The notes under the pieces: model-generated
Databases searched by the model: none
Seen by the model: only the letters and a program-made list of their open reading frames with translations
What the model was told of the DNA's origin: nothing
Part shown: one piece after another, positions 58-20,958 of the stretch
Position numbering within the stretch: position 1 is the stretch's first letter
How the letters are laid out: every line of letters starts with the position of its first letter
Made by a program: the position numbers and the translations under genes
Assembly (NCBI GenBank): GCA_017444065.1
Contig: JAFSXJ010000002.1
Span: 1 to 35,537 of the forward strand
DNA: 35,537 nucleotides
Reading direction: 5' to 3'
Source of the DNA: Paludibacteraceae bacterium
Lineage (GTDB): Bacteria; Bacteroidota; Bacteroidia; Bacteroidales; Paludibacteraceae

Positions 58-1251
58 ATGAAGCACTCATCCGTTATCATTCTTGGTTCCGCCCTTATCG
101 GGCTGGTAGTTACCGCTTGCAGTCAGCCGCAGCCGACACCACGTGAAGCGTTGATACAACGCCTGCAAGATTTGCAGCAGCGGGGTTGCATGTTTGGGCA
201 CCAGGATGACCCGTTCTACGGCATAGGCTGGGAGTACGAGGACGGCCGTAGCGATGTCCGTGAGACCTGCGGCGACTGGCCTGCTGTCATGGGTTTTGAC
301 CTCGGTGGCATTGAGATGGGCGACCAGAAGAACCTCGACAGTGTACCGTTCGACTGCATTCGTCGGGAGATCATCAGTCACTACGAGCGCGGTGGCATAG
401 TGACCATCAGTTGGCATCCGCGTAACCCGCTGACCGCGTTGGAGCACCTTGGCACCTGGCCGGAAGGCTCAGCGTGGGAGGCGACCGACGGAACGGTAGC
501 GGCTATCCTCTCGGGCGGCGAGCGACATGAGCTGTTCATGACCTGGCTGGAGCGTGTGCGCGTGTTCCTGTTATCGTTGTGCACAGAGGACGGCGAACTC
601 ATTCCGTTCATCTTCCGTCCGTGGCACGAGAACAACGGCGCATGGTTCTGGTGGGGCAACACCCATTGCACACCCGAGGAGTACCGCGCGCTGTACGCCA
701 TGACGCAGGATTATCTAACCTCCAACAGCGCCAGCGGTCTAACATCTAACAGCAATAGCGGGGTCCCCGCAAACAACGTGCAGTGGGGTGCAGGTAGCGG
801 TCTAACAGGCGAAGCCGATCTAACATCCAACATCGTCTGGTCGTACTCTCCCAATCTGGACGACAACATGCCCGAAGAGAAGTTCCTGCAATGGTACCCG
901 GGCGACGAGCGCATTGACCTCATCGGCTTGGATGCTTATCAGTGGGGCACGGAAGAGGATTTTGTGCGTCAGACCCGCGTCGACCTCGACGTGCTCTGCC
1001 GCTTTGCTGCGCAGCACCACAAACTCATTGCCCTCACCGAGTGCGGTTTTGCCAACGTGCCTGACGCCAGTTGGTGGGATAGGGTATTGCTGTCCATCCT
1101 CTGCGACTACCCCTTGTCGTACGCGCTGGCTTGGCGCAACGCCGAGCATGAGTTCTTTGGCCCTACGCCCACCAACCCCGAGAGTGTTACCCATTTCCGC
1201 GCGTTCCACGATGCACCGCGCACGCTATTCTTGAAAGACATTACAAAATAA
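58..1251 (+). CDS. GH26 endo-beta-1,4-mannanase lipoprotein
   Basis: Predicted beta-mannanase that cleaves mannan or glucomannan backbones, probably at the cell surface or in the periplasm. The ATG at 58 is chosen because it gives a lipoprotein signal peptide ending in the lipobox VTAC (Cys21); an in-frame TTG-initiated extension upstream has no support. Clan-A GH26 landmarks are visible: RPWHENNGAWFWWG carries the acid/base Glu191, and LTECG carries the nucleophile Glu328. The 397-residue length fits the family. Residues about 220-259, in the loop before the VWSYSPN strand, are an unusually Ser/Asn/Gly-rich insertion encoded by a 7-bp-periodic array; relatives have only a short turn there. 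The CE7 and GH130 genes follow on the same strand, 12 bp and about 2.3 kb on, consistent with a mannan operon. No SusC/SusD pair is in view. Confidence 0.9.
   Translation: MKHSSVIILGSALIGLVVTACSQPQPTPREALIQRLQDLQQRGCMFGHQDDPFYGIGWEYEDGRSDVRETCGDWPAVMGFDLGGIEMGDQKNLDSVPFDCIRREIISHYERGGIVTISWHPRNPLTALEHLGTWPEGSAWEATDGTVAAILSGGERHELFMTWLERVRVFLLSLCTEDGELIPFIFRPWHENNGAWFWWGNTHCTPEEYRALYAMTQDYLTSNSASGLTSNSNSGVPANNVQWGAGSGLTGEADLTSNIVWSYSPNLDDNMPEEKFLQWYPGDERIDLIGLDAYQWGTEEDFVRQTRVDLDVLCRFAAQHHKLIALTECGFANVPDASWWDRVLLSILCDYPLSYALAWRNAEHEFFGPTPTNPESVTHFRAFHDAPRTLFLKDITK
714..832 (+). repeat. Heptad-periodic array inside the mannanase gene
   Basis: Units of the form TCTAACA/TCCAACA occur at 714-727, 738-751, 801-807 and 819-832, with other sequence between. 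The 12-mer AGCGGTCTAACA occurs at 733 and 796, and a one-base variant lies in glnS. The array keeps the frame and codes for a low-complexity loop. It belongs to the dispersed heptad family described in the findings. Confidence 0.75.
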
Positions 1252-1263
1252 ATAATAATCACA

Positions 1264-3423
1264 ATGAAAAAACTTTCTGTTATATTTGCCTTGGTCGCGA
1301 TGTGTTCGCTTACATGGGCATCGGAAACAATCTTGTATTCTGATGAGTTTACTTGCGCAGACGACTGGTCGTCGGGATATGCACTTATTGCGTCCGCTGA
1401 TTTGTCCGCAGCCGTAGCCGGTGACGAGATCAATGTGTATGTCACCGCCATCAGTACCGGAACCGAATGGCCGCAGGTGTATCTGCAGTATGTAGATGCC
1501 GAGTGGAACTGGGTGGACTTTACCGATACGCACAACTATGCACTTTCGGGACAAACCGCGCCGCACAAGGCGACCATTGCGCTGACGCAGGCGATGATTG
1601 ACAACGTGGTAGCAGGTCACTATCTCGTAGTGAAGGGCGCAGGGTTCACCGCCAACAAGATTTCGCTTACCCATGAGGCTGCGGCTGCCGGCACTACGCA
1701 ATCTATCTGGAGCGGTTCGGTGGTTATGCCGAGCAACTGGGGTGCATGGCAGACCATTGAGGCAAGCAAGTTCGCCAATGCCGTAGCAGGACAACTGCTG
1801 CGCTGCAAGTTTATGGCACTTGGTTCGAATGCCCAACTGCAACTCAAGGAGACCACAGCGTGGACTGAACTCGTCGATGCTCCCCTTGCGCTCATCAGCG
1901 GACGGTATTACGACTACACCATAACCGCCGACATGCTTGCCGAACTCAAGGCACGCGGCGTGATTGTCAGCGGTTGCAACTACACCCTGACCGAGGTGCT
2001 GCTCATCAACCCTGCCGACCTCAAGCCGCTCACGCTCTCCGTGCCCGTGACCGACAACTGGGTGTTCGACGGCAAGCCGAGTATCACCGTCCATGTGGAA
2101 AACCCCTACGATGAGGTCGTGACCGCCGACATTGAGGTGGAAATAACCACCGACAAAGCCGTTGCTCTGGATACCTTGTCCCTCTCGCGCGAGATAGCCG
2201 CCGGTGCCTCGCAGGACATCGTGCTCACCACCGATGACAACCTCGCAGCAGGCTTCTACAAAGCCACCTGCATCGTCAACGACGATCTGGCACGCGCATT
2301 CGGCTTTGCCGTGAACCCGCTTGACGTCGTTTCCGCGCCGGACAAGCAGTCGGACTTCGACACCTACTGGGCTGCCGCCAAGCAGCAGCTGGCAGACATT
2401 GATATGAACGCCACACTCACGGAGATAACCGCCAAGAGCACCGCTGCACGCAAGGTCTATCTGGTGGAGATGAACTCCGTGCCTGACGGTCTGACCGGTG
2501 AGCCGGTGGTCATTCGCGGCTACTATGCCGAGCCGCAGGACGGGCAGAAACATCCGGTTATTATGCACTACGCAGGTTATGATTCGGGTTACCGTCCCGG
2601 TGGTCAGGATGTCAAGCCCTACTGCCCTTCAGGCGATGCCGAACCGGACTATGCCGAGTTCTACCTCTCCACGCGCGGACAGAACATCAACAACCGTGCT
2701 GCCGACGAACGCGAGACGGACGGCAAGGGCGACTTCACCAACACTTACGGCGACTGGTTTGCCTTCAATTTCGGCGACAAGGACAATTACTACTACCGTG
2801 GCGCATTCATGGACTGCGTGCAGGCTGTACGCTTCATGGCAACGCGCAGCACCAGCGACATGACCAACCTCTTTGCCGAAGGCCAGAGCCAGGGCGGTGC
2901 GTTCACCTATGCGGCGGCATCCCTCTCCGACTACACGTTCCGCGCCATTGCACCCGCCATCGCTTTCCTCGGCGATTATCCCGACTACTTCGAGATAACG
3001 AACTGGCCTGCATACGTAGCCCGCGAGAACCAAGGCACGATGACCGATGCTGAGATGTTCGCGTTCCTTTCGTACTTCGATACGAAGAACCTCGCAGCCG
3101 CCATCAGCTGCCCCGTGATCGCTTGCATAGGACTGCAGGACAACGTCTGCCCGCCGCACACGAACATCGCACCCTACAACAACCTGCTCACTACCGACAA
3201 AGAGCTCATCTTCAACCCCGAGAACGCCCATCAGGCCGGCAGCACATGGTACACGGACTACATGGCCTTCTTCAAAGCGCGCGAGCAGAGCACCGGCACA
3301 GGAGTGGAAGGTGTCAGTAATCAGCCATCAGCAGTCAGCACTCAGAAGATCTTTCGCGACGGACAACTCTTTCTGATGCACAATGGGACAATGTACAATG
3401 TACAAGGCAAAATCATCAAATAA
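1264..3423 (+). CDS. Secreted CE7-family acetyl esterase with two N-terminal modules
   Basis: Probable deacetylase for acetylated mannan or xylan. It has a Sec signal peptide (about residues 1-19), then two related beta-rich modules (about 22-135 and 146-255) that look like an accessory or carbohydrate-binding duplication. An Ig-like segment follows (about 255-355), and the alpha/beta-hydrolase CE7 domain starts near DFDTYW. The catalytic triad reads as Ser542 (GQSQGG), Asp626 (GLQDNV) and His656 (ENAHQ); the RGQ motif before the nucleophile is typical of CE7/AXE1. A linker made by a heptad array (3311-3345) joins the enzyme to a C-terminal tail of about 25 residues, with the pattern K-I-F-x-D-G-x-L-F-L ... 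G-x-x-Y-x-V-x-G. The broken LRR protein at 5921-7302 ends with the same tail pattern, which may be a secretion or sorting signal. It starts 12 bp after the mannanase gene, so the two are probably cotranscribed. Confidence 0.85.
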   Translation: MKKLSVIFALVAMCSLTWASETILYSDEFTCADDWSSGYALIASADLSAAVAGDEINVYVTAISTGTEWPQVYLQYVDAEWNWVDFTDTHNYALSGQTAPHKATIALTQAMIDNVVAGHYLVVKGAGFTANKISLTHEAAAAGTTQSIWSGSVVMPSNWGAWQTIEASKFANAVAGQLLRCKFMALGSNAQLQLKETTAWTELVDAPLALISGRYYDYTITADMLAELKARGVIVSGCNYTLTEVLLINPADLKPLTLSVPVTDNWVFDGKPSITVHVENPYDEVVTADIEVEITTDKAVALDTLSLSREIAAGASQDIVLTTDDNLAAGFYKATCIVNDDLARAFGFAVNPLDVVSAPDKQSDFDTYWAAAKQQLADIDMNATLTEITAKSTAARKVYLVEMNSVPDGLTGEPVVIRGYYAEPQDGQKHPVIMHYAGYDSGYRPGGQDVKPYCPSGDAEPDYAEFYLSTRGQNINNRAADERETDGKGDFTNTYGDWFAFNFGDKDNYYYRGAFMDCVQAVRFMATRSTSDMTNLFAEGQSQGGAFTYAAASLSDYTFRAIAPAIAFLGDYPDYFEITNWPAYVARENQGTMTDAEMFAFLSYFDTKNLAAAISCPVIACIGLQDNVCPPHTNIAPYNNLLTTDKELIFNPENAHQAGSTWYTDYMAFFKAREQSTGTGVEGVSNQPSAVSTQKIFRDGQLFLMHNGTMYNVQGKIIK
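3311..3345 (+). repeat. Five perfect NNNTCAG heptads in the esterase linker
   Basis: Five consecutive 7-bp units end in TCAG (GTGTCAG, TAATCAG, CCATCAG, CAGTCAG, CACTCAG). They are translated as a Ser/Gln/Val linker between the CE7 domain and the C-terminal tail. A second short run, (N)ACAATG at 3379-3407, encodes part of the tail itself. Confidence 0.8.
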
Positions 3424-3521
3424 TTTTTGAATCATTTTTGGCAATTTTTGACTAAAAGAAAAAATATTGGTTTATATTGCTAATATTTGACCGATCTTAA
3501 TCATCGTAATTTTTGACTACT

Positions 3522-4763
3522 ATGAACTTCCAAGATAAAGTAGCTGCATTGCGCCAGGCGCATGAGGCACTCATAAATAGAAAGAACGAGCCTGCAGAAG
3601 GCGGCAACGGGATTTACGTGAAGTATAAGAATCCTATCCTTACCGCCGCGCACACACCGCTGGAGTGGCGCTACGACTTCGATCAGAAGAGCAACCCCTA
3701 CCTCATGCAGCGCATCATGATGAACGCTGTGCTCAATGCCGGTGCTATCCTCTTCGAGGGCAAATACACCGTCGTAGCCCGCGTGGAGGGTGCTGACCGC
3801 AAGTCGTTCTTCGCCGTAGCACAATCCGACAACGGCATCGACGGCTGGCGGTTCTGGGACGAGCCTGTCACCCTGCCCAATGGCGATAACGCACCGGCCA
3901 CGAACGTCTATGACATGCGTCTCACCCGCCACGAGGACGGCTGGATATACGGTGTATTCTGCGTGGAGCGTCACGACGAGACAAAGCCCTTCGACACCTC
4001 TGCCGCTACCGCTGCAGCAGGTATAGCGCGCACCAAGGATCTCAGAAACTGGGAGCGTCTGCCTGATCTCAAGTCACTCTGCCAGCAGCGCAACGTAGTG
4101 CTCCATCCGGAGTTCATCCGCTGCCAAATGGTAAATGGTAAATGTGTAAATGGTAAATGGTATGCACTCTACACCCGTCCTCAAGACGGCTTTATAGACA
4201 CGGGCAAAGGTGGCGGCATAGGCTGGACGCTCGTGCCCGATATCACGCATGCCGAGGTGCGCGACGAGCGCATCATCTTCGGCCGTAACTACCACACCGT
4301 CTATGAGGTGAAGAACGGCGAAGGCCCCGCGCCTATCAAGACCGCTCAAGGCTGGCTGCATCTGGCGCATGGTGTGCGCAACACCGCCAGCGGACTCCGC
4401 TACGTGCTGTACATGTTCATGACCGCTCTGGATGACCCCACACGCGTCATTGCCCGCCCCGGCGGCTGGTTCCTCATCCCCGAGGGCAGCGAGTACATCG
4501 GCGATGTGATGAACGTAGCCTTCGCCAACGGCTGGATAGTGGAAGAAAATAAATCGTACATCGTAAATCGTCCAATCGTAAATGATAAAGACATCCGCCG
4601 TGTCTTTATCTACTACGCTTCCGCCGACACGCGCCTGCATGTAGCCACCACCACCGTTGACCGTCTCATTGACTACTGCCTCCACACCCCCGAAGACGGC
4701 CTCACCACCACCGCCAGCGTCGAGACCATCAAAGCCCTTGTGGCAAAAAACAAAGGTCTGTAG
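3522..4763 (+). CDS. GH130 4-O-beta-D-mannosyl-D-glucose phosphorylase
   Basis: Predicted cytoplasmic phosphorylase that splits mannosyl-glucose with phosphate into mannose 1-phosphate and glucose, the last step of the mannobiose epimerase/phosphorylase route. The ATG at 3522 is preferred over an upstream TTG. Recognisable GH130_1 blocks include TAAHTPLEWRYD, NAGAILFEGKY, ARVEGADRKSFF, NVYDMRLTRHEDGWIYG, AHGVRNTASGLRYVLY and FIYYASADTR. No signal peptide is present. Two insertions interrupt conserved blocks. One lies between HPEFI and YALYTRPQDGF (about residues 201-213); the other follows ANGWIVEE, before VFIYYAS (about 343-358). Both are encoded by 7-bp-periodic DNA and keep the frame. In the relatives I recall, the flanking blocks are almost adjacent. 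The gene ends at a strong terminator. Confidence 0.9.
   Translation: MNFQDKVAALRQAHEALINRKNEPAEGGNGIYVKYKNPILTAAHTPLEWRYDFDQKSNPYLMQRIMMNAVLNAGAILFEGKYTVVARVEGADRKSFFAVAQSDNGIDGWRFWDEPVTLPNGDNAPATNVYDMRLTRHEDGWIYGVFCVERHDETKPFDTSAATAAAGIARTKDLRNWERLPDLKSLCQQRNVVLHPEFIRCQMVNGKCVNGKWYALYTRPQDGFIDTGKGGGIGWTLVPDITHAEVRDERIIFGRNYHTVYEVKNGEGPAPIKTAQGWLHLAHGVRNTASGLRYVLYMFMTALDDPTRVIARPGGWFLIPEGSEYIGDVMNVAFANGWIVEENKSYIVNRPIVNDKDIRRVFIYYASADTRLHVATTTVDRLIDYCLHTPEDGLTTTASVETIKALVAKNKGL
4124..4160 (+). repeat. GTAAATG heptad array inside GH130
   Basis: Units CAAATG, GTAAATG, GTAAATG, TGTAAATG and GTAAATG run in tandem (one unit is 8 bp) and are read in frame as a Val-Asn-Gly-Lys-rich insertion next to a conserved block. 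Confidence 0.85.
4549..4588 (+). repeat. AAATCGT heptad array inside GH130
   Basis: Units AAATCGT, ACATCGT, AAATCGT, CCAATCGT and AAATGAT run in tandem and are translated in frame. The same AAATCGT unit forms the lpxC-lpxA spacer array at 14045-14073, some 9.5 kb away. Confidence 0.85.
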
Positions 4764-4783
4764 ATATGTTACATTCCTGTTCA

Positions 4784-4807
4784 AAAGGCGGCGCAAATGC
4801 CGCCTTT
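4784..4807 (+). terminator. Hairpin terminator after the phosphorylase gene
   Basis: A perfect 9-bp stem (AAAGGCGGC / GCCGCCTTT) with a 6-nt loop, 20 bp after the GH130 stop codon. The T-run is inside the stem, so it may work in both directions. It marks the end of the first mannan transcript. Confidence 0.75.
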
Positions 4808-4860
4808 GTCGTGTAAAATGCAGAATTTTCCGCATAATTGTATGAAAAAGATGCAATCTA

Positions 4861-4892
4861 TTTGCAAATATCAGATTTTTTTTGTAACTTTG
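4861..4892 (+). promoter_or_regulatory. Promoter of the MNT-HEPN pair
   Basis: TTTG (4861-4864), a 20-bp spacer and TAACTTTG (4885-4892), 20 bp before the ATG at 4913. The upstream half, starting TATTTGCAAATATCAGA and running into eight Ts, recurs exactly at 25863, inside the ATPase cassette. Confidence 0.75.
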
Positions 4893-4912
4893 CAAGCGAA
4901 AAAACAACAGTC

Positions 4913-5233
4913 ATGAGACAATCCGAAGTCATAGGCAAAATCCAAGAGGTGGCACATCGCGTGTTGCCTAAAGGAAGCACGTTATATCTCTACGGCTCAC
5001 GTGCTCGCGGAGACTATCATGAGGACTCGGATTGGGACTTGTTGGCACTACTGCCTGAACGTAATATTTCGAAAGATGACAAGCTGAATCTGTCTTGCGA
5101 CTTTTGGGAAGAAGGGCAACGCATCAATCAGGATTTCAATACATTTGTTTATACGCAGAACGAGTGGTCTTCCGCTCCGGCATCACTATTTAAGTATAAC
5201 GTTCGTAACGAAGGAGTAAAAATATGGGGTTAA
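4913..5233 (+). CDS. MNT-type nucleotidyltransferase (HEPN partner)
   Basis: A 106-residue minimal nucleotidyltransferase-fold protein. The active-site signature is clear: YGSRARGDYHEDSDWDLL contains the GS..RG motif and the paired carboxylates (DxD, within SDWD). The ATG at 4913 sits 20 bp after a well-formed promoter; the longer upstream frame would begin inside the promoter region and is rejected. The stop codon overlaps the start of the HEPN gene by 10 bp, the usual arrangement of MNT/HEPN pairs. In characterised pairs the MNT protein adds AMP to the HEPN RNase and so neutralises it. Whether this pair behaves as a toxin-antitoxin module is inference. Confidence 0.8.
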   Translation: MRQSEVIGKIQEVAHRVLPKGSTLYLYGSRARGDYHEDSDWDLLALLPERNISKDDKLNLSCDFWEEGQRINQDFNTFVYTQNEWSSAPASLFKYNVRNEGVKIWG

Positions 5234-5619
5234 CAAATGACGAAAGACAATCTATTGTTAAGTATCGAATAGAAAATGCCCAAAAGGCTCTTGCGGAAGC
5301 AAAGACAATCATGGGAATTGGCTTGTGGAATCTTGTTGCCAACCGTTTGTATTATAGTTTGTATTATGCTTGTACAGCATTGCTGATACATAATCAGCTC
5401 GCTGTTCGCACGCATACGGGGATGATGACACTCATCAATCAGCATTTTGTGCAGACAGGCCAGTTAACCAGAGACGACAGTCGTCTGCTGAAGAAGATGT
5501 ACACTCTTCGTCAAGAAGGCGATTATGAAGACTTTGTAGAGGTAACCGATGATGAGATAAGAATGTACGTTCCTCTTGTTGAAACTCTTTTGAATAAGAT
5601 ATTGGCCTTAATAGGCTAA
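5224..5619 (+). CDS. HEPN-domain protein, partner of the nucleotidyltransferase
   Basis: A 131-residue, largely helical protein with the features of the PF05168-type HEPN family: an N-terminal KYRIENAQKALAEAK helix, NLVANRLYYSLYYACTALL, and a basic segment AVRTHTGM. A strict RxxxxH catalytic motif is not obvious, so it may be a non-catalytic binding partner instead of an RNase. It begins 10 bp inside the nucleotidyltransferase gene, implying translational coupling. The pair is lower in GC than the flanking mannan genes and lies between the phosphorylase and epimerase, suggesting acquisition. Confidence 0.75.
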   Translation: MGLTNDERQSIVKYRIENAQKALAEAKTIMGIGLWNLVANRLYYSLYYACTALLIHNQLAVRTHTGMMTLINQHFVQTGQLTRDDSRLLKKMYTLRQEGDYEDFVEVTDDEIRMYVPLVETLLNKILALIG

Positions 5620-5920: not shown

Positions 5921-7302
5921 ATGAATATGAAAAAATCTATCTTCCTTTTTGTAATCCTTGCGTTTGCGCTCAATGCCTACGCATATGATTTTATGGTAGC
6001 CAATGAAGATGGCGCAGAATTGTGCTATCAAATTATCGGTACAGACCGGACTGAAGTAAGACTGACCCACGAAAGAGGCTCAAATTCAGGATGGGATAGC
6101 ACGAGTGTGAATTATCCAAATCTCCGTGTTGAAGTACTCCGCATTCCTGAGACAGTGGTTTATGATAATAAATCATATGTTGTCACGGCCATCGACTATA
6201 GTACATTTTCATGTGTCAAGACATTAAAAAAGGTAATCCTTCCGAAAACGGTGAAAAGTATTTTTCCTTTTGCCTTTAATTACTATTCGGGAATAGAAGA
6301 AATCGTTGTAGATGAAGAAAACTCTGTATATACAGCGAAAGACGGCATATTATATTCAAAAGACATGAAACGATTGTGTTGCTATCCCCCATGCAAAAAG
6401 GACTCAATTTATATCATCCCGGAAGGTCCGCAAACTGTTGAAATGTGTGCATTCCTATTGTTGCGCAATTTGCGGGACATAACTTTTCCACTTTCCTTGA
6501 AGGAAATGGAGAATTTGGCAATGGTTGATACAGTTATTCGTCGTGCGGTATTCCAAGATAGTGTTAGAATATTAGATTATGGCTCGGTCTCTTTAATGGC
6601 AGACGAGATAGTATTGGGCAATCAGGTGGGACATTTAATCAGCCATCTTTAGCAAGTTGGAAGCCTTTGGTTTTGACTTGCCGTACTCTTGTTCCGCCAT
6701 ATTTCCCCTTACAATCAGCAGGTAGTTCTCATCTTGGAAAATCTGAACTGCGTGTGCCGATGCAGAGCGTAGCCGCTTATCAACAAGCCGAAGGATGGAA
6801 ACTATTCGGCAATATTACCTCTATTGAGCCGCCTGTCGTTTCCGGCTTGAACGATGTGCAAGTATCTTGGGTGCAGAACTTCTCGGCGACAGGCTATGTC
6901 TGGACGCTTTATTTGGATGAAGAGCACACACAGCGGTTCATGACACTTACCTTTGATGCCAACGGACATCTGACCAACATTGACATCGCAAGCAACAACG
7001 CTCCGGCACGCTCACCTGCACTATACGAAGGCGAAGAAGATGAGCAGACGCATTTTGCAGAATACTATTCTTTCACGATTACCGGTCTTTCTTCCAATAC
7101 ATCCTACTACTTTGTCCGTCAGAGTTTATGCGACACAGAAGTTATCGACGAGGAGAACGGCACATTTGCCACGCAATCGATTGCAACTGCTCTTGATAAC
7201 AGCAATGAACTGTATGCACCGACCAAGGTCATCAGCAATGGTACTATTCTTATCAAGCAAGGCAACAAGACTTATTCGGTCACAGGCACAGAAGTAAAAT
7301 AA
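5921..7302 (+). pseudogene. BspA-like leucine-rich-repeat surface protein, frame-broken
   Basis: The first frame (5921-6652) has a signal peptide (MKKSIFLFVILAFALNAYA) and BspA-type LRR units, such as LKKVILPKTVKSIFPFAF and GIEEIVVDEENSVYTAKDG. It stops at TAG near 6652. The second frame continues at once with residues that fit the same protein (NQPSLASWKPLVL ... LRVPMQSVAAYQQAEGW), then a fibronectin-like segment and a C-terminal tail (KVISNGTILIKQGNKTYSV...) resembling that of the CE7 esterase. The frames differ by -1, so one base appears to be missing (or two added) around 6625-6645. This could be a real mutation or an assembly error. Intact members are extracellular adhesion or surface proteins. 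The tail is probably a sorting signal, by inference from its recurrence. Confidence 0.75.
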
Positions 7303-7323
7303 AATGCCGTTACAATATTCACG

Positions 7324-9583: not shown

Positions 9584-9597
9584 TCGCCCCTATGAAG

Positions 9598-10797: not shown

Positions 10798-10865
10798 TGA
10801 TAAATGATAAATGATATTTTGTGCTTACCGGAAAATGTCAATTGTCAATTGTCAATTATCAATTA
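10798..10865 (+). repeat. Two heptad arrays between rpoD and the HD gene
   Basis: TGATAAA, TGATAAA, TGATATT at 10798-10818, and TCAATTG, TCAATTG, TCAATTA, TCAATTA at 10838-10865, ending 7 bp before the next start codon. These are intergenic members of the same family found inside genes. Confidence 0.85.
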
Positions 10866-10872: not shown

Positions 10873-12093
10873 ATGGCGAATAAGCGTAAGATTATTAACG
10901 ATCCTGTATTCGGGTTCATATCCATACCCAACGAACTCATTTACGACGTACTGCAGCACCCCTACGTGCAACGTCTGAACCGCATACGACAACTCGGCTT
11001 GTCGTATGTCGTTTATCCTGGCGCCCAGCATAGCCGTTTCCTGCACTCCATCGGGGCGATGCACCTGATGAGTGACGCCATAGCCTCACTCCGCCAGAAA
11101 GGCATCACCATCACCGATGACGAAGCCAATGGCGCGATGATTGCCATCCTACTGCACGACCTCGGGCACGCACCGTTCTCGCACGTCATGGAGCACACGC
11201 TCATCGAGGGCATAACCCATGAAGAGGTGTCCCTGATCATGATGCAGGAGATTAACCGCGAACTAAACGGCGCACTCGATACCGCTATCGCCATCTTCAG
11301 GAACATGTACCCGAAGCATTTCCTCCACCAGCTCATTTCCTCGCAGTTCGATATGGACCGCATGGACTACCTCTGCCGTGACTCGTTCTTCACTGGCGTA
11401 ACCGAGGGAAGCGTGGCTTCGGCGCGACTGATCAAGATGCTCAATGTGGTGGATGACCGCTTGGTCATTGAGGCGAAAGGTATCTATTCGGTGGAGAAGT
11501 TCCTCATTGCACGACGCCTGATGTACTGGCAGGTATATCTGCACAAGACGTCCGTGGCTGCCGAACAGTTGCTCATCAAGATTCTTGACCGCGCCAAGCA
11601 ACTTGCACACGACGGCGTAGAATTGTTCTGCCCGCCGGCCCTGCACTACTTCCTCTATCAGCACATGACCGGTGATGTCTTCGCCCAGGATAGTTATGCC
11701 CTCCAGCAGTACGCTCTGTTGGACGACTCGGATATCCTGTCGGCCATCAAGGCGTGGCAGAACCAGCCGGACACCACCTTACGGTTGCTCGCCGAGGCGT
11801 TCGTCAACCGACAGTTGTTCAAGGGACGGCTGCTTGAGCAGCCTCTCACCCCGGCAGAGCACGAACAGTTGCAGCAACAGTACGCCACACGCTTCGGCAT
11901 ATCCAAAACGGATGCAAGGTTCTTCTACGAAGAGCATGTATCCACATCGAACACCTATTCGGAGAAAGACGACAGTATCGACATTCTCTATAACGACGGT
12001 ACGGTGCGCAACATTGCGGAGGCGTCAGACATGCTGAACTTGCAGACGCTCACCTACAAGCCGAAAAAACTATACTTATTCTACTATCAATGA
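10873..12093 (+). CDS. HD-domain phosphohydrolase (dNTPase/SAMHD1-like)
   Basis: A 406-residue cytoplasmic metal-dependent phosphohydrolase of the HD superfamily. The metal-binding residues are spread as expected: HSRFLHSIGAMHL, then LLHDLGHAPFSHVMEH (the HD doublet), and SSQFDMDRMDYLCRDS (the distal Asp). The conserved start IINDPVFGFISIPNELIYDVLQHPYVQRL also fits the family. Members act on nucleotides, often dGTP or other dNTPs; the exact substrate cannot be read from sequence. Its last four bases overlap the lpxD start (ATGA), which points to cotranscription with lipid A genes. Confidence 0.88.
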   Translation: MANKRKIINDPVFGFISIPNELIYDVLQHPYVQRLNRIRQLGLSYVVYPGAQHSRFLHSIGAMHLMSDAIASLRQKGITITDDEANGAMIAILLHDLGHAPFSHVMEHTLIEGITHEEVSLIMMQEINRELNGALDTAIAIFRNMYPKHFLHQLISSQFDMDRMDYLCRDSFFTGVTEGSVASARLIKMLNVVDDRLVIEAKGIYSVEKFLIARRLMYWQVYLHKTSVAAEQLLIKILDRAKQLAHDGVELFCPPALHYFLYQHMTGDVFAQDSYALQQYALLDDSDILSAIKAWQNQPDTTLRLLAEAFVNRQLFKGRLLEQPLTPAEHEQLQQQYATRFGISKTDARFFYEEHVSTSNTYSEKDDSIDILYNDGTVRNIAEASDMLNLQTLTYKPKKLYLFYYQ

Positions 12094-14035: not shown

Positions 14036-14044
14036 TGACCAAGA

Positions 14045-14073
14045 AAATCGTAAATTTGTAAATCGTAAATAAT
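14045..14073 (+). repeat. AAATCGT heptad array between lpxC and lpxA
   Basis: AAATCGT, AAATTTGT, AAATCGT, AAATAAT, ending at the base before the lpxA start codon. It shares its unit with the second GH130 array and lies where a fused FabZ domain would normally be encoded. Confidence 0.8.
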
Positions 14074-14850: not shown

Positions 14851-14875
14851 AAACGACATCAAATAACTTAGAGAT

Positions 14876-16624
14876 ATGGAACAAGAAGAGCGCAGCCTCA
14901 ATTTCATTGAGCAAATCGTAGAGAAAGACCTTGTCGAGGGCAAGAACGACGGACGTATACAGACGCGTTTCCCGCCCGAACCGAACGGTTACCTGCACAT
15001 CGGCCACGTCAAGGCCATCTGCATGGACTTCGGCATAGCCGAGAAGTACAACGGCGTCTGCAACCTGCGTTTTGATGACACCAACCCCGCCAAAGAGGAT
15101 ACCGAGTATGTGGAGACTATCGAGCGCGACATCGCATGGTTGGGATTCAAGTGGGGACAGATCTATTACGCCTCCGATTACTTCCAGCAGCTCTACGACC
15201 TCGCTATCCGCTTTATCAAGGAAGGCAAGGCATACGTGGACGAACAAACCGCCGAGCAGATAGCCGAGCAGAAAGGCACGCCTACCGAACCCGGTGTGGC
15301 TTCGCCTTATCGCGACCGGCCGGTGGAGGAGAACCTGCGCCTGTTCCAAGCCATGCAGAACGGAGAGATAGAGGAGGGCAAAATGGTGCTCCGCGCCAAG
15401 ATCGACATGGCTAACCCGAACATGCACTTCCGTGACCCGATCATGTACCGCATCATCACCTCGCATCCGCATCACCGTACGGGTCGCAAGTGGAACGTCT
15501 ATCCGATGTACGATTTCGCACACGGGCAGTCCGACTACTTCGAGGGCGTGACACACTCCATCTGTACGCTGGAGTTCGAGGTGCACCGGCCGCTGTACGA
15601 CTACTTCCTCGACCAGATTACCGGTGAGAACTTCGCCGGCCTGTCGCCCTACGGTCCGGACTACCGCCCCAAGCAGCGCGAGTTCAACCGCCTGAACATC
15701 ACGTATACCGTCATGTCGAAGCGCAAGATGCTCCAGCTGGTGAAGGAAGGTCTCGTTGCCGGCTGGGATGACCCGCGTATGCCGACGGTATGCGGTCTGC
15801 GCCGCCGCGGTTATACCCCGCAGTCCATCCGCACCTTCATGGACAAAATAGGCTACACCAAGGTGGAAGGCATGATTGACCAAGGTCTGCTGGAGCATAC
15901 CATCCGCGAGGACCTCAAGGAGACTGCCCCGCGCATCTGTGCAATCTTCGATCCCGTCAGACTCGTTATCACCAACTACGAAGGCAGCGGAGAAACGATT
16001 ATTGCCGCCAATATTGACGGCAACGACGAACTTGGAACCCGCGAGATGCAGTTCGGCAAAGAACTGTGGATTGAGCGCGGCGACTTCCTCGAACAGGCGG
16101 ATAACAAGTTCTACCGTCTCAGCCCGGGCGGTCGCGAAGTGCGGCTCAAGGCGTCGTACATCATCCAGGCTACCGGCTGCGACAAGGATGCCGACGGAAA
16201 TATTACTACCGTTTATGCCACCTACGACCCGGACAGCAAGTCCGGCACCGAGGGAGGCAACCGCAAGACCAAAGCCACCATCAACTGGGTGGAGTGCAAC
16301 AGCGCGCTCGATGCCGAGGCACGTCTGTACGACCGCTTGTTTGCGTGTGAGAACCCGAGTGCCGAGGAAGGTGACTTCCGCGACCTGCTCAACCCCGACA
16401 GCCTGATTGTCAAGAACATCAAGGTCGAAGGCTCGCTGCGTAGCGAACTTCTGGCAGCGAAGCGGTCTGTCAGCGACAGCGGTCTGACATCTGTCAACGA
16501 AGTGGTCAACTATAACCACTACCAGCTTCTCAAGCAAGGCTACTTCGTGGTTGACCCCGACACAACGGCTGACCGCCTCGTGCTCAACCGCACCTGCTCG
16601 CTCAAGGATAACTACCTCAAATAG
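14876..16624 (+). CDS. glnS: Glutaminyl-tRNA synthetase
   Basis: Class I synthetase that charges tRNA-Gln. The HIGH motif (PPEPNGYLHIGHVKA) and the KMSKS-type motif (VMSKRKML) are present, as are LRFDDTNPAKED and the C-terminal anticodon-binding barrels ending in DRLVLNRTCSLKD. Between IKVEGSLR and the final GYFVVDPD block, about 30 residues (about 522-549) diverge from the usual sequence. They coincide with a heptad-like array sharing the AGCGGTCTRACA unit with the mannanase insertion. The gene starts 25 bp after lpxA. Confidence 0.95.
   Translation: MEQEERSLNFIEQIVEKDLVEGKNDGRIQTRFPPEPNGYLHIGHVKAICMDFGIAEKYNGVCNLRFDDTNPAKEDTEYVETIERDIAWLGFKWGQIYYASDYFQQLYDLAIRFIKEGKAYVDEQTAEQIAEQKGTPTEPGVASPYRDRPVEENLRLFQAMQNGEIEEGKMVLRAKIDMANPNMHFRDPIMYRIITSHPHHRTGRKWNVYPMYDFAHGQSDYFEGVTHSICTLEFEVHRPLYDYFLDQITGENFAGLSPYGPDYRPKQREFNRLNITYTVMSKRKMLQLVKEGLVAGWDDPRMPTVCGLRRRGYTPQSIRTFMDKIGYTKVEGMIDQGLLEHTIREDLKETAPRICAIFDPVRLVITNYEGSGETIIAANIDGNDELGTREMQFGKELWIERGDFLEQADNKFYRLSPGGREVRLKASYIIQATGCDKDADGNITTVYATYDPDSKSGTEGGNRKTKATINWVECNSALDAEARLYDRLFACENPSAEEGDFRDLLNPDSLIVKNIKVEGSLRSELLAAKRSVSDSGLTSVNEVVNYNHYQLLKQGYFVVDPDTTADRLVLNRTCSLKDNYLK
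16461..16496 (+). repeat. Heptad-type array inside glnS
   Basis: AGCGGTCTGTCA (16461-16472), AGCGGTCTGACA (16478-16489) and TCTGTCA (16490-16496). The middle unit differs by one base from AGCGGTCTAACA, found twice in the mannanase gene. It is translated in frame. Confidence 0.65.
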
Positions 16625-16625
16625 A

Positions 16626-16655
16626 CCAATAGCCAACAGCCAATGGCTAATAGCC
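16626..16655 (+). repeat. 30-bp heptad array overlapping a start codon
   Basis: Four heptad steps (CCAATAG, CCAACAG, CCAATGG, CTAATAG, then CC), starting two bases after the glnS stop. The sequence is identical to 18729-18758 in comM. The ATG of the next gene (16643) is within the array. Confidence 0.9.
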
Positions 16656-17044
16656 GGTTATATTGTCCTTTCCGCCGCAAGTGGGTGGCCTCGACACCGG
16701 AAGAAGGCGTACGTCAGGCATTCCTTCGGGCGATGGTGGAGCAGCTGGGCTACCCGCAGTCACTCATCGGCGTAGAGGTGCCGATAGAGGTGGGCGCAGG
16801 CGTAACGAAGCGGTGCGATGCGGTGGTCTATACTTCTTCGCTCCGGCCGCTAATGCTCCTTGAGTTCAAAGCACCGGAAGTGGAAATCACACAGTCCACC
16901 CTCGACCAGGCAGCCGTTTACAACACCACCATCCGTGCGCCTTACCTCATCCTTGCCAACAGCAGACAGACGGTCGTGGCGCACATCACAACTGATAATC
17001 AAATAACATTTCTAAATACTATCCCTGCATGGAGTCAGTTATAA
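16643..17044 (+). CDS. HsdR N-terminal-like (PF13588-type) small protein
   Basis: A 133-residue protein related to the stand-alone type I restriction R-protein N-terminal domains common in Bacteroidetes. Conserved landmarks are [18 protein letters not shown], the nuclease-fold acidic residue in KRCDAVVY, and [23 protein letters not shown] (E-x-K). Typical homologues have a longer N-terminus before the RRKxV block. Here the start codon and first residues (MANS) are supplied by a heptad array, so the N-terminus may have been replaced. Its end overlaps phoH by 16 bp. The role is unknown; a link to restriction is not implied by this housekeeping location. Confidence 0.7.
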
Positions 17045-17955
17045 CCTTGAACGAAGCCGTCGATACCAAAGCTTTCTATGGTATCAACAATGCCAATATC
17101 CTCTGCCTGAGCAACCAGCATCCCGAGGTACGTGTGGTGGCGCGCGGTTATACACTCAAGGTCACAGGTCCGGAGCACGCGGTACGCCGTTTTCAGCAGG
17201 CGGTAGAGCGCTGCCAGGAGGTCTGCCTGAGCCACGGTTCGCTCAGCGAGGCGATGATTCTTGACCTGCTGCACGGCTCGGCACCCGAGACGGTCAACCA
17301 CGAGCATCTTATCCTGCACGGCGTAGGCGGAAAGCCTATTCTGGCACGTTCGGTCAACCAGCGCAAACTCGTCGAGGCGTTCCTCTCCGACGACCTCCTC
17401 TTCGCCGTCGGGCCTGCAGGCTCAGGCAAAACGTACACAGCCATAGCATTAGCTGTCCGGGCTCTCAAGAACAAAGAAGTCAAGCGTATCATCCTGTCAC
17501 GTCCGGCTGTCGAGGCGGGCGAGAAACTCGGCTTCCTGCCGGGGGACATGAAGGAGAAGATCGACCCGTACCTGCAACCACTCTATGATGCCTTGCAGGA
17601 TATGCTTCCCGCCAACAAACTGCAGGAGTACATGGAGCGCGGAACCATTCAGATTGCGCCATTGGCATTCATGCGCGGACGCACATTGTCGGACGCGGTT
17701 GTCATACTCGATGAGGCGCAGAACGCTACCGTTCTTCAGCTCAAGATGTTCCTCACCCGCATGGGTCTGGGCAGCAAGATGATTGTCACCGGCGATCTTA
17801 CGCAGATTGACCTGCCTGCATCGCAACGCTCCGGACTGAGCGATGCCATGGCGCGTCTCCGCGGCATCAAGGGCATTCAGGTTGTTGAGTTCACCCAACA
17901 GGACATCGTCCGTCACCATCTCGTAACGCATATTGTCAAGGCTTATGCTGATTAA
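17029..17955 (+). CDS. phoH: PhoH-family ATPase
   Basis: A cytoplasmic P-loop ATPase of the PhoH/PhoL family, linked in other bacteria to RNA metabolism. An N-terminal KH-like region is followed by Walker [14 protein letters not shown] and Walker [12 protein letters not shown], together with [16 protein letters not shown] and GDLTQIDLP. At 308 residues it is full length. It overlaps both neighbours (16 bp upstream, 11 bp downstream), indicating a tight operon. Confidence 0.92.
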
Positions 17956-19525
17956 CACCTACTCCGCTACATCCGTCGGCATCGATGCAGTCATCGTCAC
18001 CGTTGAGGTGAATGCCACGCCCGGCTACGACTTTACCCTGGTCGGACTGCCCGATACGGCTGTCAAGGAAGGACACGAACGTATCCTCTCCGCTATACAG
18101 ATAGCGGGCATCCGCATCCCGCAACGGCAATACACAATCAATATGTCGCCGGCCGACCTCAAGAAGGAAGGAGCGGCATTCGATCTCACGCTTGCTATCG
18201 GGCAACTCGCTGCCACCGAGATTGTGCAGAGCAGTCTGCTCTCGCAGTTCCTCATCTTAGGCGAATTGTCGCTCGACGGTCATCTGCGTCCTGTACACGG
18301 CTGCCTGCCAATCGCTATAGCAGCCAAGAACAACGGTTTCCGCGGAGTCATTCTCCCTGCCGACAACGCCAATGAGGCGGCGGTGGTCGATGGTATCGAG
18401 GTCTATGGCTTTGAGCACCTGACGGATGTCATAGCGTTCCTCAACGGCACGGCGCAAGCCGAACCGACGCATGTTGATGCTGCCGAACTGCTCAGCACGT
18501 ACGCTTTCCCCGATGACATCGATTTTGCAGAGGTGCGCGGTCAGCAGGAGGTACGCCGTGCCATCGAGGTAGCCGCAGCTGGCGGACATAACATCATCAT
18601 GATTGGCCCGCCGGGCGCAGGCAAGTCCATGATGGCAAAGCGTATTCCTACCATCCTGCCGCCCATGACGCTCAGCGAAGCGTTGGAGACCACAAAGATT
18701 TACTCCGTCTCCGGCAAACTCCGCAAGGCCAATAGCCAACAGCCAATGGCTAATAGCCTGGTAGTTCAGCGTCCGTTCCGCTCACCGCATCACACCATAA
18801 CCGATGTCACGCTCGTCGGAGGCGGCAACAATCCCCATCCGGGAGAGGTCAGTCTCGCACACAACGGTGTGCTCTTTCTTGACGAGTTGGCGGAGTTCAA
18901 GCGCTCGGCACTCGAGGTGCTCCGTCAGCCTCTCGAGGACGGACATATAACCGTTGCACGCAACAAACTCTCGGTCGATTATCCTGCACACTTCATGCTC
19001 GTGGCAGCGATGAACCCCTGCCCGTGCGGACATTACGGCGACCTCAAGCATCCGTGCACCTGCACGCCGGCACAACGTCATCGCTACATGAGCCGCATCA
19101 GCGGACCGCTGCTTGACCGTATAGATATCCAGTGCCACATTGAGGCCGTCAGCTACGATGACCTGCGGAGCAAGGCGGACGGCGAGCCGTCGGCGTCTAT
19201 CCGCGAACGGGTACTCAAAGCGCGTGCTATCCAAACCGAACGGTTCAGCGGCACGCCTACCCACTGCAACGCGCAGATGACGCCTTCAATGGTTCGCCGG
19301 TATTGCCAATTGACATCCGAGGCAGAGCAGCAACTGCGTATGGCTATGGACCTCTACGGACTTTCGGCACGTGCCTACGACCGCATCCTGAAGGTCGCAC
19401 GAACCATCGCCGACCTTGATGCCGTTACCTATCCGGATCGGCCGTTGTCGAACACTCTGACCACGCCCCAACTGCTACAAGCCATCCAGTTCCGCCAGCT
19501 CGACCGCGCCGACTGGGGCGAATAA
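17945..19525 (+). CDS. comM: YifB/ComM-family Mg-chelatase-like AAA+ ATPase
   Basis: A ring-forming AAA+ protein; ComM promotes branch migration during natural transformation in Vibrio. ATG 17945 gives the standard [15 protein letters not shown] start; the TTG four codons upstream is not needed. Visible blocks are the ChlI-type N-terminal domain, Walker [25 protein letters not shown] (Walker B), [10 protein letters not shown] and C-terminal [19 protein letters not shown]. Between SVSGKLRK and [12 protein letters not shown], about ten residues ([10 protein letters not shown]) are encoded by a heptad array identical to the one before the HsdR-N-like gene. This loop is normally short and variable. 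Confidence 0.92.
18729..18758 (+). repeat. 30-bp heptad array inside comM
   Basis: Base-for-base identical to 16626-16655. Here it is translated in the same phase (atg gct aat agc) as at the other locus, where that ATG is a start codon. Confidence 0.9.
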
Positions 19526-19645
19526 TCCGGCTCGCACGTTCTTTCATCTTTGTCCACTGCACCCAAATACTATTCGGGCTGCCGATGCTGTGTTTGATAT
19601 TTCATACATTTTGGCGCCTATTTGGTACAAAAGCCGCAGAAAAAC

Positions 19646-19676
19646 TTGCAAATATCAAAAAAAAGCTGTACCTTTG
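19646..19676 (+). promoter_or_regulatory. Promoter of the LytTR operon
   Basis: TTG (19646-19648), a 20-bp spacer, TACCTTTG (19669-19676), 16 bp before the ATG at 19693, giving a very short leader. Confidence 0.75.
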
Positions 19677-19692
19677 CATCGCAATTTGAGCA

Positions 19693-20058
19693 ATGCCCAA
19701 CACTCATCTGATCATATCGACCTCCAATGACCTGCTACGCGTGGCAGCGGGGCATATATTGTACATCTCGTCGGATGGCAACTACTGCAACTTCTTCCAG
19801 ACGGGTGGCGAGATGCGGCTCGTGACATATCAGTTGGGGCAGATTGAGCGGATGATTGCCGAGCAGTTGCCCGAGTTGGGCAGGCAGTTTGTCAGGATAG
19901 GCAAGAGCCTGATTGTCAACCTCAATTACGTGTATTATATCAATGTGCCCAAGCAGCAGCTTATCCTCGTTGATTGGCAACAGAACCGCTACACGCTCTC
20001 TGCGAGCAAAGAGGCACTGAAGGCATTGAAGGAACTCATAGAGCATAGTAACGTATGA
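19693..20058 (+). CDS. Stand-alone LytTR DNA-binding regulator
   Basis: A 121-residue protein that is essentially only a LytTR domain: ILYISSDGNYCNFFQTGGE, then the conserved block LGRQFVRIGKSLIVNLNYVYYI and a final ALKALKELI helix. No receiver domain precedes it, so it is not a standard two-component regulator. It overlaps the next gene, a membrane protein, by 4 bp. The layout resembles LytTR regulatory systems, in which a membrane partner controls the DNA-binding protein; here that is inference. Confidence 0.85.
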   Translation: MPNTHLIISTSNDLLRVAAGHILYISSDGNYCNFFQTGGEMRLVTYQLGQIERMIAEQLPELGRQFVRIGKSLIVNLNYVYYINVPKQQLILVDWQQNRYTLSASKEALKALKELIEHSNV

Positions 20059-20942
20059 TGAAAGAAGATATATCCGATAGTGAGATTCGAGTGATTGGCA
20101 TCGGTCAATCGCAGCCCGGGCAGCCTTTTCCGTGGCGGAAGGTGACGGTCACGTTGGCCGTCATAGTGGCGATTGGGCTGGTCGTGTGGCTGCTGTGCCC
20201 TAAACAGATGAGTCCAGAACCGATAGAGACCGGCGTGTTTGAGCAAGAGACCATCGCCCAGCCTCATCCCCTCAGCGAGTGGCTGGCAGGCTTGGACAGC
20301 CTTGCCGTCTGCGCCACCGCTACACGCGACATAACCGTCAACGATATCCCTTTGCGCGTCTATGTGCCCCTGAACAGCACGCCGCATCTGGAAGTGGGCT
20401 ATGGTATAGCGGATAACCGCGGACGGAGCATCCTGTTCTTCCAGGCGGCGGATGTGCGCGCGGATAACAAGAAGATCGTGGGCGCATTCGTGCTCCGTGG
20501 CGAACCGCTCAGTCGCGGATTGAGCAAGCGCGGCTATTGCGCGATTATCGGCGGCAAAGTGACTGTAGGCGTAGCGGACAACTCCCCGCTCTTTGAGCAG
20601 GCGACTGAGCAGAACGGCGATTTCTTCCGGCAGTACCCGCTGGTGGACAACGGCCTGCTGGTGGAGAACGAACTGAAGAACAAATCCATCCGTCGCGGCT
20701 TGTGCGACATTGACGGCCGCATTGCCGTTATCGAGAGCCAGACGCAGGAGTCTCTGCACGATTTCTCTCAGGCACTGGTGGATGCAGGTGTCAGCAATGC
20801 TATCTATCTGGTGGGCAGCACGGCTATGGGCTGGTGCATGGATACCGAAGGCGTTGGCACCAAGCGCGGCTTGTGGGACGAGCGCGTGTATGAGAACGTT
20901 AGTTTCATTGTCTGGCCAAACACTACCACCTCTAATCTCTAG
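20055..20942 (+). CDS. Single-pass membrane protein with NAGPA/DUF2233-like domain
   Basis: A 295-residue protein with a cytoplasmic N-terminus of about 27 residues, one transmembrane helix (VTVTLAVIVAIGLVVWLL) and a periplasmic domain. The latter half (RGYCAIIGGKVTVGVADNS ... RRGLCDIDGRIAVIESQTQ ... LVDAGVSNAIYLVGSTAMGW) resembles phosphodiester-glycosidase (NAGPA, DUF2233) domains. The usual D-G-G-x-S motif is replaced by V-G-S-T, so catalytic activity is doubtful. It is translationally coupled to the LytTR gene, so it may sense an envelope signal or regulate that protein. The stop codon lies in a heptad array, so the C-terminal residues (TTTSNL) are repeat-derived. Confidence 0.55.
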   Translation: MMKEDISDSEIRVIGIGQSQPGQPFPWRKVTVTLAVIVAIGLVVWLLCPKQMSPEPIETGVFEQETIAQPHPLSEWLAGLDSLAVCATATRDITVNDIPLRVYVPLNSTPHLEVGYGIADNRGRSILFFQAADVRADNKKIVGAFVLRGEPLSRGLSKRGYCAIIGGKVTVGVADNSPLFEQATEQNGDFFRQYPLVDNGLLVENELKNKSIRRGLCDIDGRIAVIESQTQESLHDFSQALVDAGVSNAIYLVGSTAMGWCMDTEGVGTKRGLWDERVYENVSFIVWPNTTTSNL

Positions 20943-20958
20943 TCTCTCACCTTTCAAC
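20931..20958 (+). repeat. Heptad array supplying a stop codon
   Basis: TCTAATC, TCTAGTC, TCTCACC, TTTCAAC. The TAG at 20940-20942 in the second unit ends the membrane protein gene. Confidence 0.7.

What the first reader, a model, noticed from the sequence alone, without database searches (positions are those of the whole stretch)
714..20958. Dispersed family of 7-bp-periodic repeat arrays, both intergenic and in frame inside conserved genes
At least ten short arrays share a 7-bp period but use different unit sequences: TCTAACA, NNNTCAG, GTAAATG, AAATCGT, TGATAAA, TCAATTG, CCAATAG, TCTAGTC. About half are between genes and half are translated without breaking the frame, always next to or within conserved blocks. 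Similar heptameric short tandem repeats are known from heterocystous cyanobacteria; the in-frame use in core enzymes here looks unusual. The shared period with differing units suggests a copying or slippage mechanism that imposes period, not sequence.
Basis: partly seen in the sequence, partly recalled or inferred. Interest (0 to 1): 0.85.

Follow-up and report, generated by a model that had tools for sequence, protein, structure and literature searches.

The report
Seven-base repeats inside core genes
In a group of related bacteria, short runs of a seven-letter DNA word, with favourite words that differ between species, are scattered through the genome and also sit in frame inside loops of core enzymes, where related species carry other words or none.

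Summary
The arrays are real: 13 seven-bp-periodic segments in the window against 0.64 expected, with an excess in all four genomes sampled. The genome is a Bacteroidales MAG, probably Paludibacteraceae (inferred). Per base, arrays favour intergenic DNA. Yet a quarter to two-fifths lie in frame inside ORFs in this genus: 7 of 18 in stretches of this genome not picked for repeats, 15 of 39 in G007, 8 of 32 in G014, against 0 of 21 in another family. Hosts include RecF, DNA polymerase I, AroB, SufB, MutS2, SecDF and several tRNA synthetases. One RecF loop carries heptamer arrays in 11 of 30 genomes of the genus (nine words), an AroB loop in 13 of 30; other lags hardly score. Words are lineage-specific: (AATGGAA)2 occurs 74 times in G035 and in none of 48 of 61 congeners. 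No shared flanks were seen, and MutS is present. Best reading: slippage-prone heptamer satellites whose words spread within a genome by ectopic copying and are tolerated in loops; slippage and copying are inferred. Heptameric repeats are known; interior in-frame use in core enzymes is a new variant.

The parts
714..803 (+). In-frame repeat in the GH26 gene (YLTSNSASGLTSNSNSG...); 24-bp word family, not strictly heptameric
   Evidence: Pfam GH26
3320..3345 (+). 7-bp array (NTCAGCN) in frame near the C-terminus of the AXE1 esterase ORF
3388..3405 (+). 7-bp array (ACAATGT) close to the end of the same ORF
4126..4162 (+). 7-bp array (AAATGGT) in frame in the GH130 gene; identical DNA at the same place in G007
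4550..4583 (+). 7/14-bp array (AAATCGT) in frame in the GH130 gene; the G007 alignment has a gap there
10798..10816 (.). 7-bp array (TGATAAA) between a sigma-70 (RpoD-like) gene and ORF 10873-12093 (HD domain by eye); no array in G001
10836..10865 (.). 7-bp array (TCAATTG/A) just before the start codon of ORF 10873-12093; no array in G001, 8-bp-like repeats in G007
14045..14070 (.). 7-bp array (AAATCGT) between lpxC and lpxA; G007 has more copies of the same word, G001 an AATTTTT-type repeat
16448..16510 (+). In-frame insert in GlnRS (LLAAKRSVSDSGLTSVNE), 16/24-bp word family; 19 residues opposite a gap in PDB chain 1o0b_A
16620..16655 (.). 7-bp array (CCAATAG/CCAACAG) just after GlnRS; contains the mechanically called ATG of the next ORF (16643)
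18728..18758 (+). 7-bp array (GCCAAYR) in frame in a loop of YifB/ComM ([12 protein letters not shown])
20930..20947 (.). Marginal 7-bp repeat at the end of ORF 20055-20942
   Evidence: score 8
21067..21085 (.). 7-bp array (AATTTTT) near the start of ORF 21027-22145

Best explanation
These are dispersed heptamer satellites. A 7-nt repeat can grow and shrink by replication slippage, since loops of 7 nt should be poorly seen by mismatch repair. In each lineage a few words have been amplified to tens of loci on both strands by copying from array to array, most likely template switching or ectopic repair synthesis. Because 7 and 3 share no factor, a stop-free word encodes the same cyclic heptapeptide in all three frames. 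Only the total inserted length must then be a multiple of three, and arrays survive where a protein tolerates a hydrophilic loop. The same tolerant loops are therefore filled, emptied and refilled with words of each species. Shown here: the period, lineage-specific words, dispersal, no shared flanks seen, in-frame positions in variable segments, repeated turnover, and a bias towards hydrophilic peptides among words open on both strands. Inferred: slippage as the source of growth, ectopic copying as the source of spread, exposure of the loops and near-neutrality of the inserts.
For: Period excess in four genomes. In-frame arrays in ORFs: 7 of 18 in G000 stretches not picked for repeats (11 of 25 with the window, 20 of 35 with contigs chosen for one word), 39 of 92 in G007 (15 of 39 in the size-chosen part), 8 of 32 in G014; families. 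RecF loop with arrays in 11 of 30 genomes (9 words), AroB in 13 of 30 (8 words). At the same cut-off, lags 4-13 other than 7 give at most 1 in RecF and 1 in AroB; lag 14 gives 8 and 8. Pooled lag-7 identity over four loops is 0.380, against 0.239-0.260 at the other lags 4-13 and 0.351 at lag 14. At least 10 and 12 changes of word on the trees. Word counts: (AATGGAA)2 74 in G035, 0 in 48 of 61; (AGTCGAA)2 75, 65 and 62 in G007, G022 and G065, 0 in 24 of 61; reversed-pattern controls total 6 and 2. G035, G022 and G065 carry those same words in RecF. 16 of 19 variant AGTCGAA units are two of the 21 possible. No shared flanks by eye in 21 AGTCGAA arrays, beyond partial units and, in two, the 16/24-bp words. 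Where a word is stop-free on both strands, the coding orientation is the more hydrophilic in 22 of 27. The ComM loop is 17-18 residues in 79 of 80 named genomes, 23 in one, 25 in the window.
Against: No copying event between a known donor and recipient was seen; strain-level length variation could not be tested. The word in a loop is not always a common one: G017 and G075 have CTCTACA in RecF but only 4 and 5 matches in all, two of each in RecF itself, while G077 has 55 and no RecF array. By the 7-bp test the GlnRS loop is array-like in 0 of 28 genomes and ComM in 1 of 30; the inserts of ComM in G001 and G007, and of GlnRS in G000, G007 and G022, look like the 16/24-bp words. Against solved structures only AroB (about 20 residues) and GlnRS (19) are clear insertions; RecF and PrmC are 4 residues longer and RNase R a few; in HisRS, SufB and LpxB the array replaces a segment without lengthening it. 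The GH130 array is identical in G007, so some arrays are old or constrained. GCCAAYR is less specific: 14 of 61 genomes, controls present. In CTCAACN the last base takes all four letters, so restricted variants are not general. Over all in-ORF arrays the hydrophilic bias is weak: 42 of 67. Presence of an array in RecF is not clearly scattered or clustered on the tree (7 changes, shuffled mean 9.3; 7% of shuffles as low).
Confidence: 0.6

Rival explanations
1. Local slippage only: each array grows from a chance seed where it stands and its word drifts in place by mutation and homogenisation; nothing moves between loci.
For: 7-bp repeats are reported as the commonest long SSRs in many bacteria and slippage has been proposed for them (passages in PMC4679880 and PMC4692102). 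G000 and G007 have RecF loops of equal length with words two transitions apart. G001's AroB array changes word by one base along its length.
Against: Independent seeds would not give one word at tens of loci in one species and none in most others. The same two variants of AGTCGAA recur at 5 and 7 loci.
Confidence: 0.2
2. Selected sequence: the words are binding sites of a protein (DNA, or RNA near start codons, as proposed for TAACTGA repeats), maintained and spread by selection.
For: Many intergenic arrays lie within about 30 bp of a start or stop codon. Units in one genome share a skeleton in three of the four sampled genomes. MacGregor 2015 proposes translational regulation (abstract).
Against: In-gene arrays sit inside RecF, PolA, AroB and others without evident regulatory logic. 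Intergenic arrays in G007 occur in co-directional, convergent and divergent gaps (35, 8, 7; baseline of gaps of 30 bp or more 233, 36, 39). Words differ between congeners.
Confidence: 0.1
3. A mobile element of the MITE or Rickettsia palindromic element kind carries the arrays.
For: Dispersed, on both strands, in frame in genes. The 16/24-bp coding words include palindromic pieces, and a non-periodic piece of about 34 bp recurs with them (by eye).
Against: No shared flanks by eye in 21 AGTCGAA arrays of G007, beyond partial units and, in two, the 16/24-bp words. Arrays vary from under 3 to over 40 copies with no constant ends seen. No target duplication is evident at one diverged empty site in G001.
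Confidence: 0.07
4. Assembly or binning artefact.
For: The genome is an 80.6%-complete assembly in 145 contigs.
Against: The same pattern occurs in many separate genomes, in frame within conserved genes, with species-consistent words.
Confidence: 0.02

Closest known systems
Heptameric simple sequence repeats of bacteria: long SSRs of Mrazek 2007 and the heptanucleotides of Calothrix (seen only through PMC4679880 and PMC4692102; the names Mazel and STRR are recalled), GGGNATC of Xanthomonas/Nostoc (PMC4692102, passages), TAACTGA of Beggiatoaceae, Cyanobacteria and five Bacteroidetes including Paludibacter (PMC4679880: abstract, sections 12 and 15, passages)
   Same: 7-bp tandem units, short arrays, many intergenic and near start codons, both orientations, neighbour species without the array
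   Different: Many words per genome with lineage-specific favourites; imperfect units; in-frame arrays in the interior of core enzymes. MacGregor found in-ORF repeats mostly at protein ends or in short hypothetical proteins
Rickettsia palindromic elements (passages of the MITE review PMC10969869)
   Same: Short repeats inserted in frame in unrelated protein genes
   Different: RPEs are elements of about 150 bp with a conserved peptide; these are open-ended heptamer arrays with no constant ends seen
Phase-variable SSRs, e.g. the 7-bp repeats of HMW1A in Haemophilus influenzae (PMC8262952, search listing only)
   Same: Tandem repeats able in principle to change copy number
   Different: Many arrays here are in housekeeping genes in frame; no switching shown
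MITEs / REP-type repeats
   Same: Dispersed, multi-copy, small
   Different: No terminal inverted repeats, constant length or shared flanks seen

Membership tests
Heptameric SSR / STRR-type repeats | Tandem units of 7 bp in excess of chance | tested here: met
Heptameric SSR / STRR-type repeats | Dispersed at many loci of one genome with related units | tested here: met
Heptameric SSR / STRR-type repeats | Predominantly intergenic | tested here: inconclusive
   Outside ORFs: 15 of 35 in the partly selected G000 total, 53 of 92 in G007, 24 of 32 in G014, 21 of 21 in G060, although ORFs hold 88-94% of bases; yet 25-40% are inside ORFs in the genus
Heptameric SSR / STRR-type repeats | Copy number varies between strains by slippage | not testable with these tools
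   one genome per species held, no reads
Rickettsia palindromic element-like | In-frame insertion inside unrelated protein genes | tested here: met
Rickettsia palindromic element-like | Element of about 150 bp, palindromic, with a conserved peptide | tested here: not met
   Heptamer arrays of variable length and word, no shared flanks seen; the 16/24-bp family was not tested for this
MITE / transposed element | Terminal inverted repeats, target-site duplication, constant ends | tested here: inconclusive
   21 AGTCGAA arrays of the G007 sample show no shared flanks by eye; target duplication looked for at one empty site only
Phase-variable contingency locus | Copy-number change switches a gene on or off | not testable with these tools
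   no strain data
Mutator by loss of mismatch repair | MutS missing | tested here: not met
   MutS over cut-off in 10 of 10 genomes; MutL and others not tested

The most novel reading that the evidence does not exclude
Heptamer words behave as minimal selfish sequences. An unidentified copying activity in this genus spreads a lineage-specific 7-bp word, without transposase or ends, into tens of sites including loops of essential enzymes. The length 7 is favoured in part because such a word reads as one and the same peptide in every frame. The result is that variable loops of core proteins are rewritten with a new vocabulary in each species.
Probability: 0.3. Interest if true: 0.9.

Novelty: new variant of a known kind. 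Interest (0 to 1): 0.72.

Why it matters
It offers a natural record, replicated over many species, of short tandem DNA entering and leaving the same loops of core proteins. Loop tolerance, the origin of new protein segments and the spread of satellite words in bacteria could all be measured on it. It bears on an open question, why 7 bp is so common among long bacterial repeats. It also warns that heptapeptide inserts in annotated core enzymes of these genomes are repeat-derived and should be left out of phylogenies and structure alignments.

Tried and rejected
Mismatch-repair loss by absence of MutS: rejected, present in 10 of 10 genomes. A larger mobile element around the heptamer arrays: no shared flanks seen by eye in 21. 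Arbitrary units under a shared period: rejected within G000, G007 and G014. The skeleton test fails for G060 (48.8 against a null maximum of 52.0) and for the named set (95.0 against 99.9); all pooled 303.5 against 296.7. Its null does not allow for units that are one-letter relatives.

Period 7 as a general Bacteroidota trait: in the ComM neighbourhoods of 80 named loci, which I grouped by record title, Bacteroidales show 22 segments in 275,962 bases, flavobacteria 1 in 131,916, other Bacteroidota 3 in 112,431, and five non-Bacteroidota loci 10 in 37,644, the strong ones in Desulfonema and a Nitrospinota MAG.

Papers: ten searches. Searches returned none; others (15 of 16 listed; 15 of 84 listed) returned listings. 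By title and the starts of abstracts, none of the listed papers describes in-frame heptamer arrays in Bacteroidales core genes. Mrazek 2007 and Ogata 2002 are not held.

Weak points: ORFs were called mechanically, and some in-ORF rows are probably spurious (L047 3018, L135 15750, L146 17514, window 21067). The window itself was picked by the finding, and G000 contigs behind L051-L057 were chosen for one word. G007's first sample leans on contigs from a hit list. Loop counts rest on the 30 best loci per protein, not on all genomes with a match (55-60 of 61 for GlnRS, RecF and AroB; 56 of 61 for ComM). Trees were built with FastTree without a support check, and words at tips were assigned by hand.
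Full report
What was checked. The window is G000:C110, in an assembly of 2,423,618 bases, 145 contigs, 80.6% complete. The ComM alignment finds Bacteroidales as nearest named relatives, at 61% identity for a UBA3810 genome and a rumen Paludibacteraceae genome, so Paludibacteraceae is likely but inferred. G001 and G007 are the closest congeners by ComM, 90 and 89% identical in protein. Window genes named here were checked against NCBIfam: a sigma-70 RpoD-like gene (below the RpoD cut-offs), lpxC, lpxA and YifB/ComM. The HD-domain label of ORF 10873-12093 is by eye and found no family.

The observation. Tandem Repeats Finder and a lag scan recover the arrays. At lag 7 there are 13 segments at score 8 and 7 at score 10, against 0.64 and 0.04 in 100 shuffles. 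TCTAACA at 714 has a 24-bp period and belongs to a second dispersed family of 16/24-bp words, seen also in GlnRS of the window and in UvrA of G000 and G007. TCTAGTC at 20930 is marginal.

Genome-wide. At score 10 G000 has 18 lag-7 segments in 364,533 bases not picked for repeats, and three shuffles gave 0, 1 and 1. G014 has 32 in 169,217. G060, of another family in the order, has 21 in 200,000, where a 10-bp period is about as common (19). Periods 8 and 11 also rise in this genus.

In frame in core genes. Per base, arrays favour the 6-12% of sequence outside mechanically called ORFs. Inside ORFs lie 7 of 18 arrays in G000 stretches not picked for repeats (11 of 25 with the window, 20 of 35 with contigs chosen for the word GCCAACA), 39 of 92 in G007 (15 of 39 in the size-chosen part), 8 of 32 in G014 and 0 of 21 in G060. 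I scanned 45 repeat-bearing proteins, chosen by me, against NCBIfam or Pfam: 42 from these rows and from UvrA of two genomes, and three of the window (GH130, GH26, YifB/ComM). 41 of 45 matched a family. They include RecF, MurF, PrmC (two arrays), SufB, HisRS, IleRS, AlaRS, CysRS, RlmN, LpxB, SecDF, RecQ, MutS2, DNA polymerase I, AroB, an RNase R-type RNB protein, YifB/ComM and GH130 and, with the 16/24-bp words, UvrA and GH26.

Against solved structures. Organisms of PDB chains are not in the output, so I give chains only. AroB has 25 residues between its two aligned blocks where chain 1xag_A has 5. GlnRS has 19 residues opposite a gap in 1o0b_A. The RecF segment is 4 residues longer than 5z68_A. 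Of the two PrmC arrays one lies at a 4-residue gap of 1sg9_A and the other at none. RNase R is a few residues longer. In HisRS, SufB and LpxB the array replaces a variable segment without lengthening it. So the arrays sit in variable segments, but not all are net insertions.

Turnover at the same site. In ComM the three closest species carry three different inserts. Most more distant congeners have shorter loops or loops of similar length, one (L033) a longer one. In 80 named genomes the span that is 25 residues in the window is 17-18 in 79 and 23 in one. Between the sigma gene and its neighbour the window has two arrays, G007 an 8-bp-like repeat and G001 a few bases. Between lpxC and lpxA the window and G007 share AAATCGT, while G001 has an AATTTTT-type repeat. 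A peptidase M28 gene has GCCAACA-type repeats in G000 and AGTCGAA followed by the 16-bp words in G007 at the same point. Of 21 gaps between collinear G000/G007 alignment blocks, 9 hold a periodic array in one or both. Over the genus, 11 of 30 RecF loops and 13 of 30 AroB loops carry 7-bp arrays, against 0 of 28 GlnRS and 1 of 30 ComM loops (two of the ComM loci are from other families). At the same cut-off lags 4-13 other than 7 score in at most one loop per lag and gene, and lag 14 in 8 RecF and 8 AroB loops. Pooled identity at lag 7 is 1476 of 3882 (0.380), at the other lags 4-13 0.239-0.260, at lag 14 0.351. On simple trees the RecF words need at least 10 changes for 9 words, the AroB words 12 for 8.

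Words belong to lineages. Within genomes, identical units recur: 129 of 3570 pairs in G007 (shuffled mean 7.3, maximum 14), 15 of 406 in G000 (1.4, 4), 6 of 325 in G014 (0.9, 4), 4 of 78 in G060 (0.2, 3). Between G007 and G014 there are 0 of 2210, between G000 and G007 37 of 2465. Pattern counts in 61 congeners agree. (AATGGAA)2 gives 74 in G035 (both strands, some 35 places in the listing), 11 in G073 and none in 48. (AGTCGAA)2 gives 75, 65 and 62 in G007, G022 and G065, 37 each in G009 and G015, and none in 24. (CTCTACA)2 gives 55 in G077 and none in 50. Reversed patterns total 6, 2 and 5. G035, G022 and G065 carry in their RecF loop the word they have amplified. Against this, CTCTACA stands in RecF of G017 and G075, which have 4 and 5 matches in all, and not in RecF of G077. 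GCCAAYR is spread over 14 of 61 genomes.

How it may work. 21 AGTCGAA arrays of G007 show no shared flanks by eye, beyond partial units and, in two, the 16/24-bp words. AGTCGAT and AGTCAAA make 16 of 19 variant units, which fits copying of variants from array to array; for CTCAACN the last base is free, so this is not general. MutS is not lost. Passages of PMC4060949 say that repair is efficient for loops of 1-3 bp and drops with loop length. Passages of PMC4679880 and PMC4692102 report the proposal that 7 nt reflects polymerase contact. A heptamer reads as the same cyclic heptapeptide in all frames. Where the unit is stop-free on both strands, the coding orientation is the more hydrophilic in 22 of 27 (6 of 7, 12 of 14, 4 of 6), while over all in-ORF arrays it is 42 of 67. 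This suggests insertion in either orientation followed by selection for soluble loops. Growth by slippage and spread by ectopic copying are inferences; no event was observed.

Against what is known. Heptameric repeats are known in cyanobacteria, xanthomonads, Beggiatoaceae and some Bacteroidetes, including Paludibacter. MacGregor 2015 (abstract, sections 12 and 15 and passages) found in-ORF copies mostly at protein ends or in short hypothetical proteins, and considered mobility without an evident mechanism. Rickettsia palindromic elements (passages of PMC10969869) are the nearest case of in-frame tolerance I found, but are longer elements of another kind. I therefore class the finding as a new variant of a known kind.

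Noticed in passing
window 710-805 and 16448-16510; G007 loci: Second dispersed coding family of 16/24-bp words (GTCTGTCTTCTGTCAGCGCAGCGG; peptides such as SGLSSVSASGLS, AQRSVSDSG), frequent in G007, in UvrA, GlnRS, ComM, GH26 and others.
   Followed up: partly
window 756-791; L093 769-843, L105 19242-19339, L158 12854-12889: A non-periodic piece of about 34 bp (GGGGTCCCC...GCAGTGGGGTGC) recurs next to those words at unrelated loci.
   Followed up: no
L121, L128, L129, L130 (G060): A 10-bp periodic family (GGAATGAGTC, AGAGGAAGTT) about as frequent as the 7-bp one in a different Bacteroidales family.
   Followed up: no
L226, L227: Strong 7-bp arrays also in Desulfonema magnum and a Nitrospinota MAG.
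   Followed up: no
window 4910-5230 and 5224-5616: Adjacent nucleotidyltransferase and HEPN genes, an MNT/HEPN-type pair.
   Followed up: partly
window 23501-29935: Eco57I-type methylase, AAA/DUF4143 ATPase and a large ORF with a T5orf172 domain; the large ORF reads like a helicase to me (recall, no family hit): possible defence cluster.
   Followed up: no
window 5921-6652 and 6667-7302: BspA-type LRR gene followed in another frame by a second ORF; may be a split gene.
   Followed up: no
G001:C58:8580-10258: GlnRS of G001 is found in two overlapping reading pieces, meeting at about residue 460 of 582, so it is frame-broken or mis-assembled there.
   Followed up: no
window 16620-16655: The CCAATAG array contains the called ATG and first codons of the ORF 16643-17044.
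   Followed up: no
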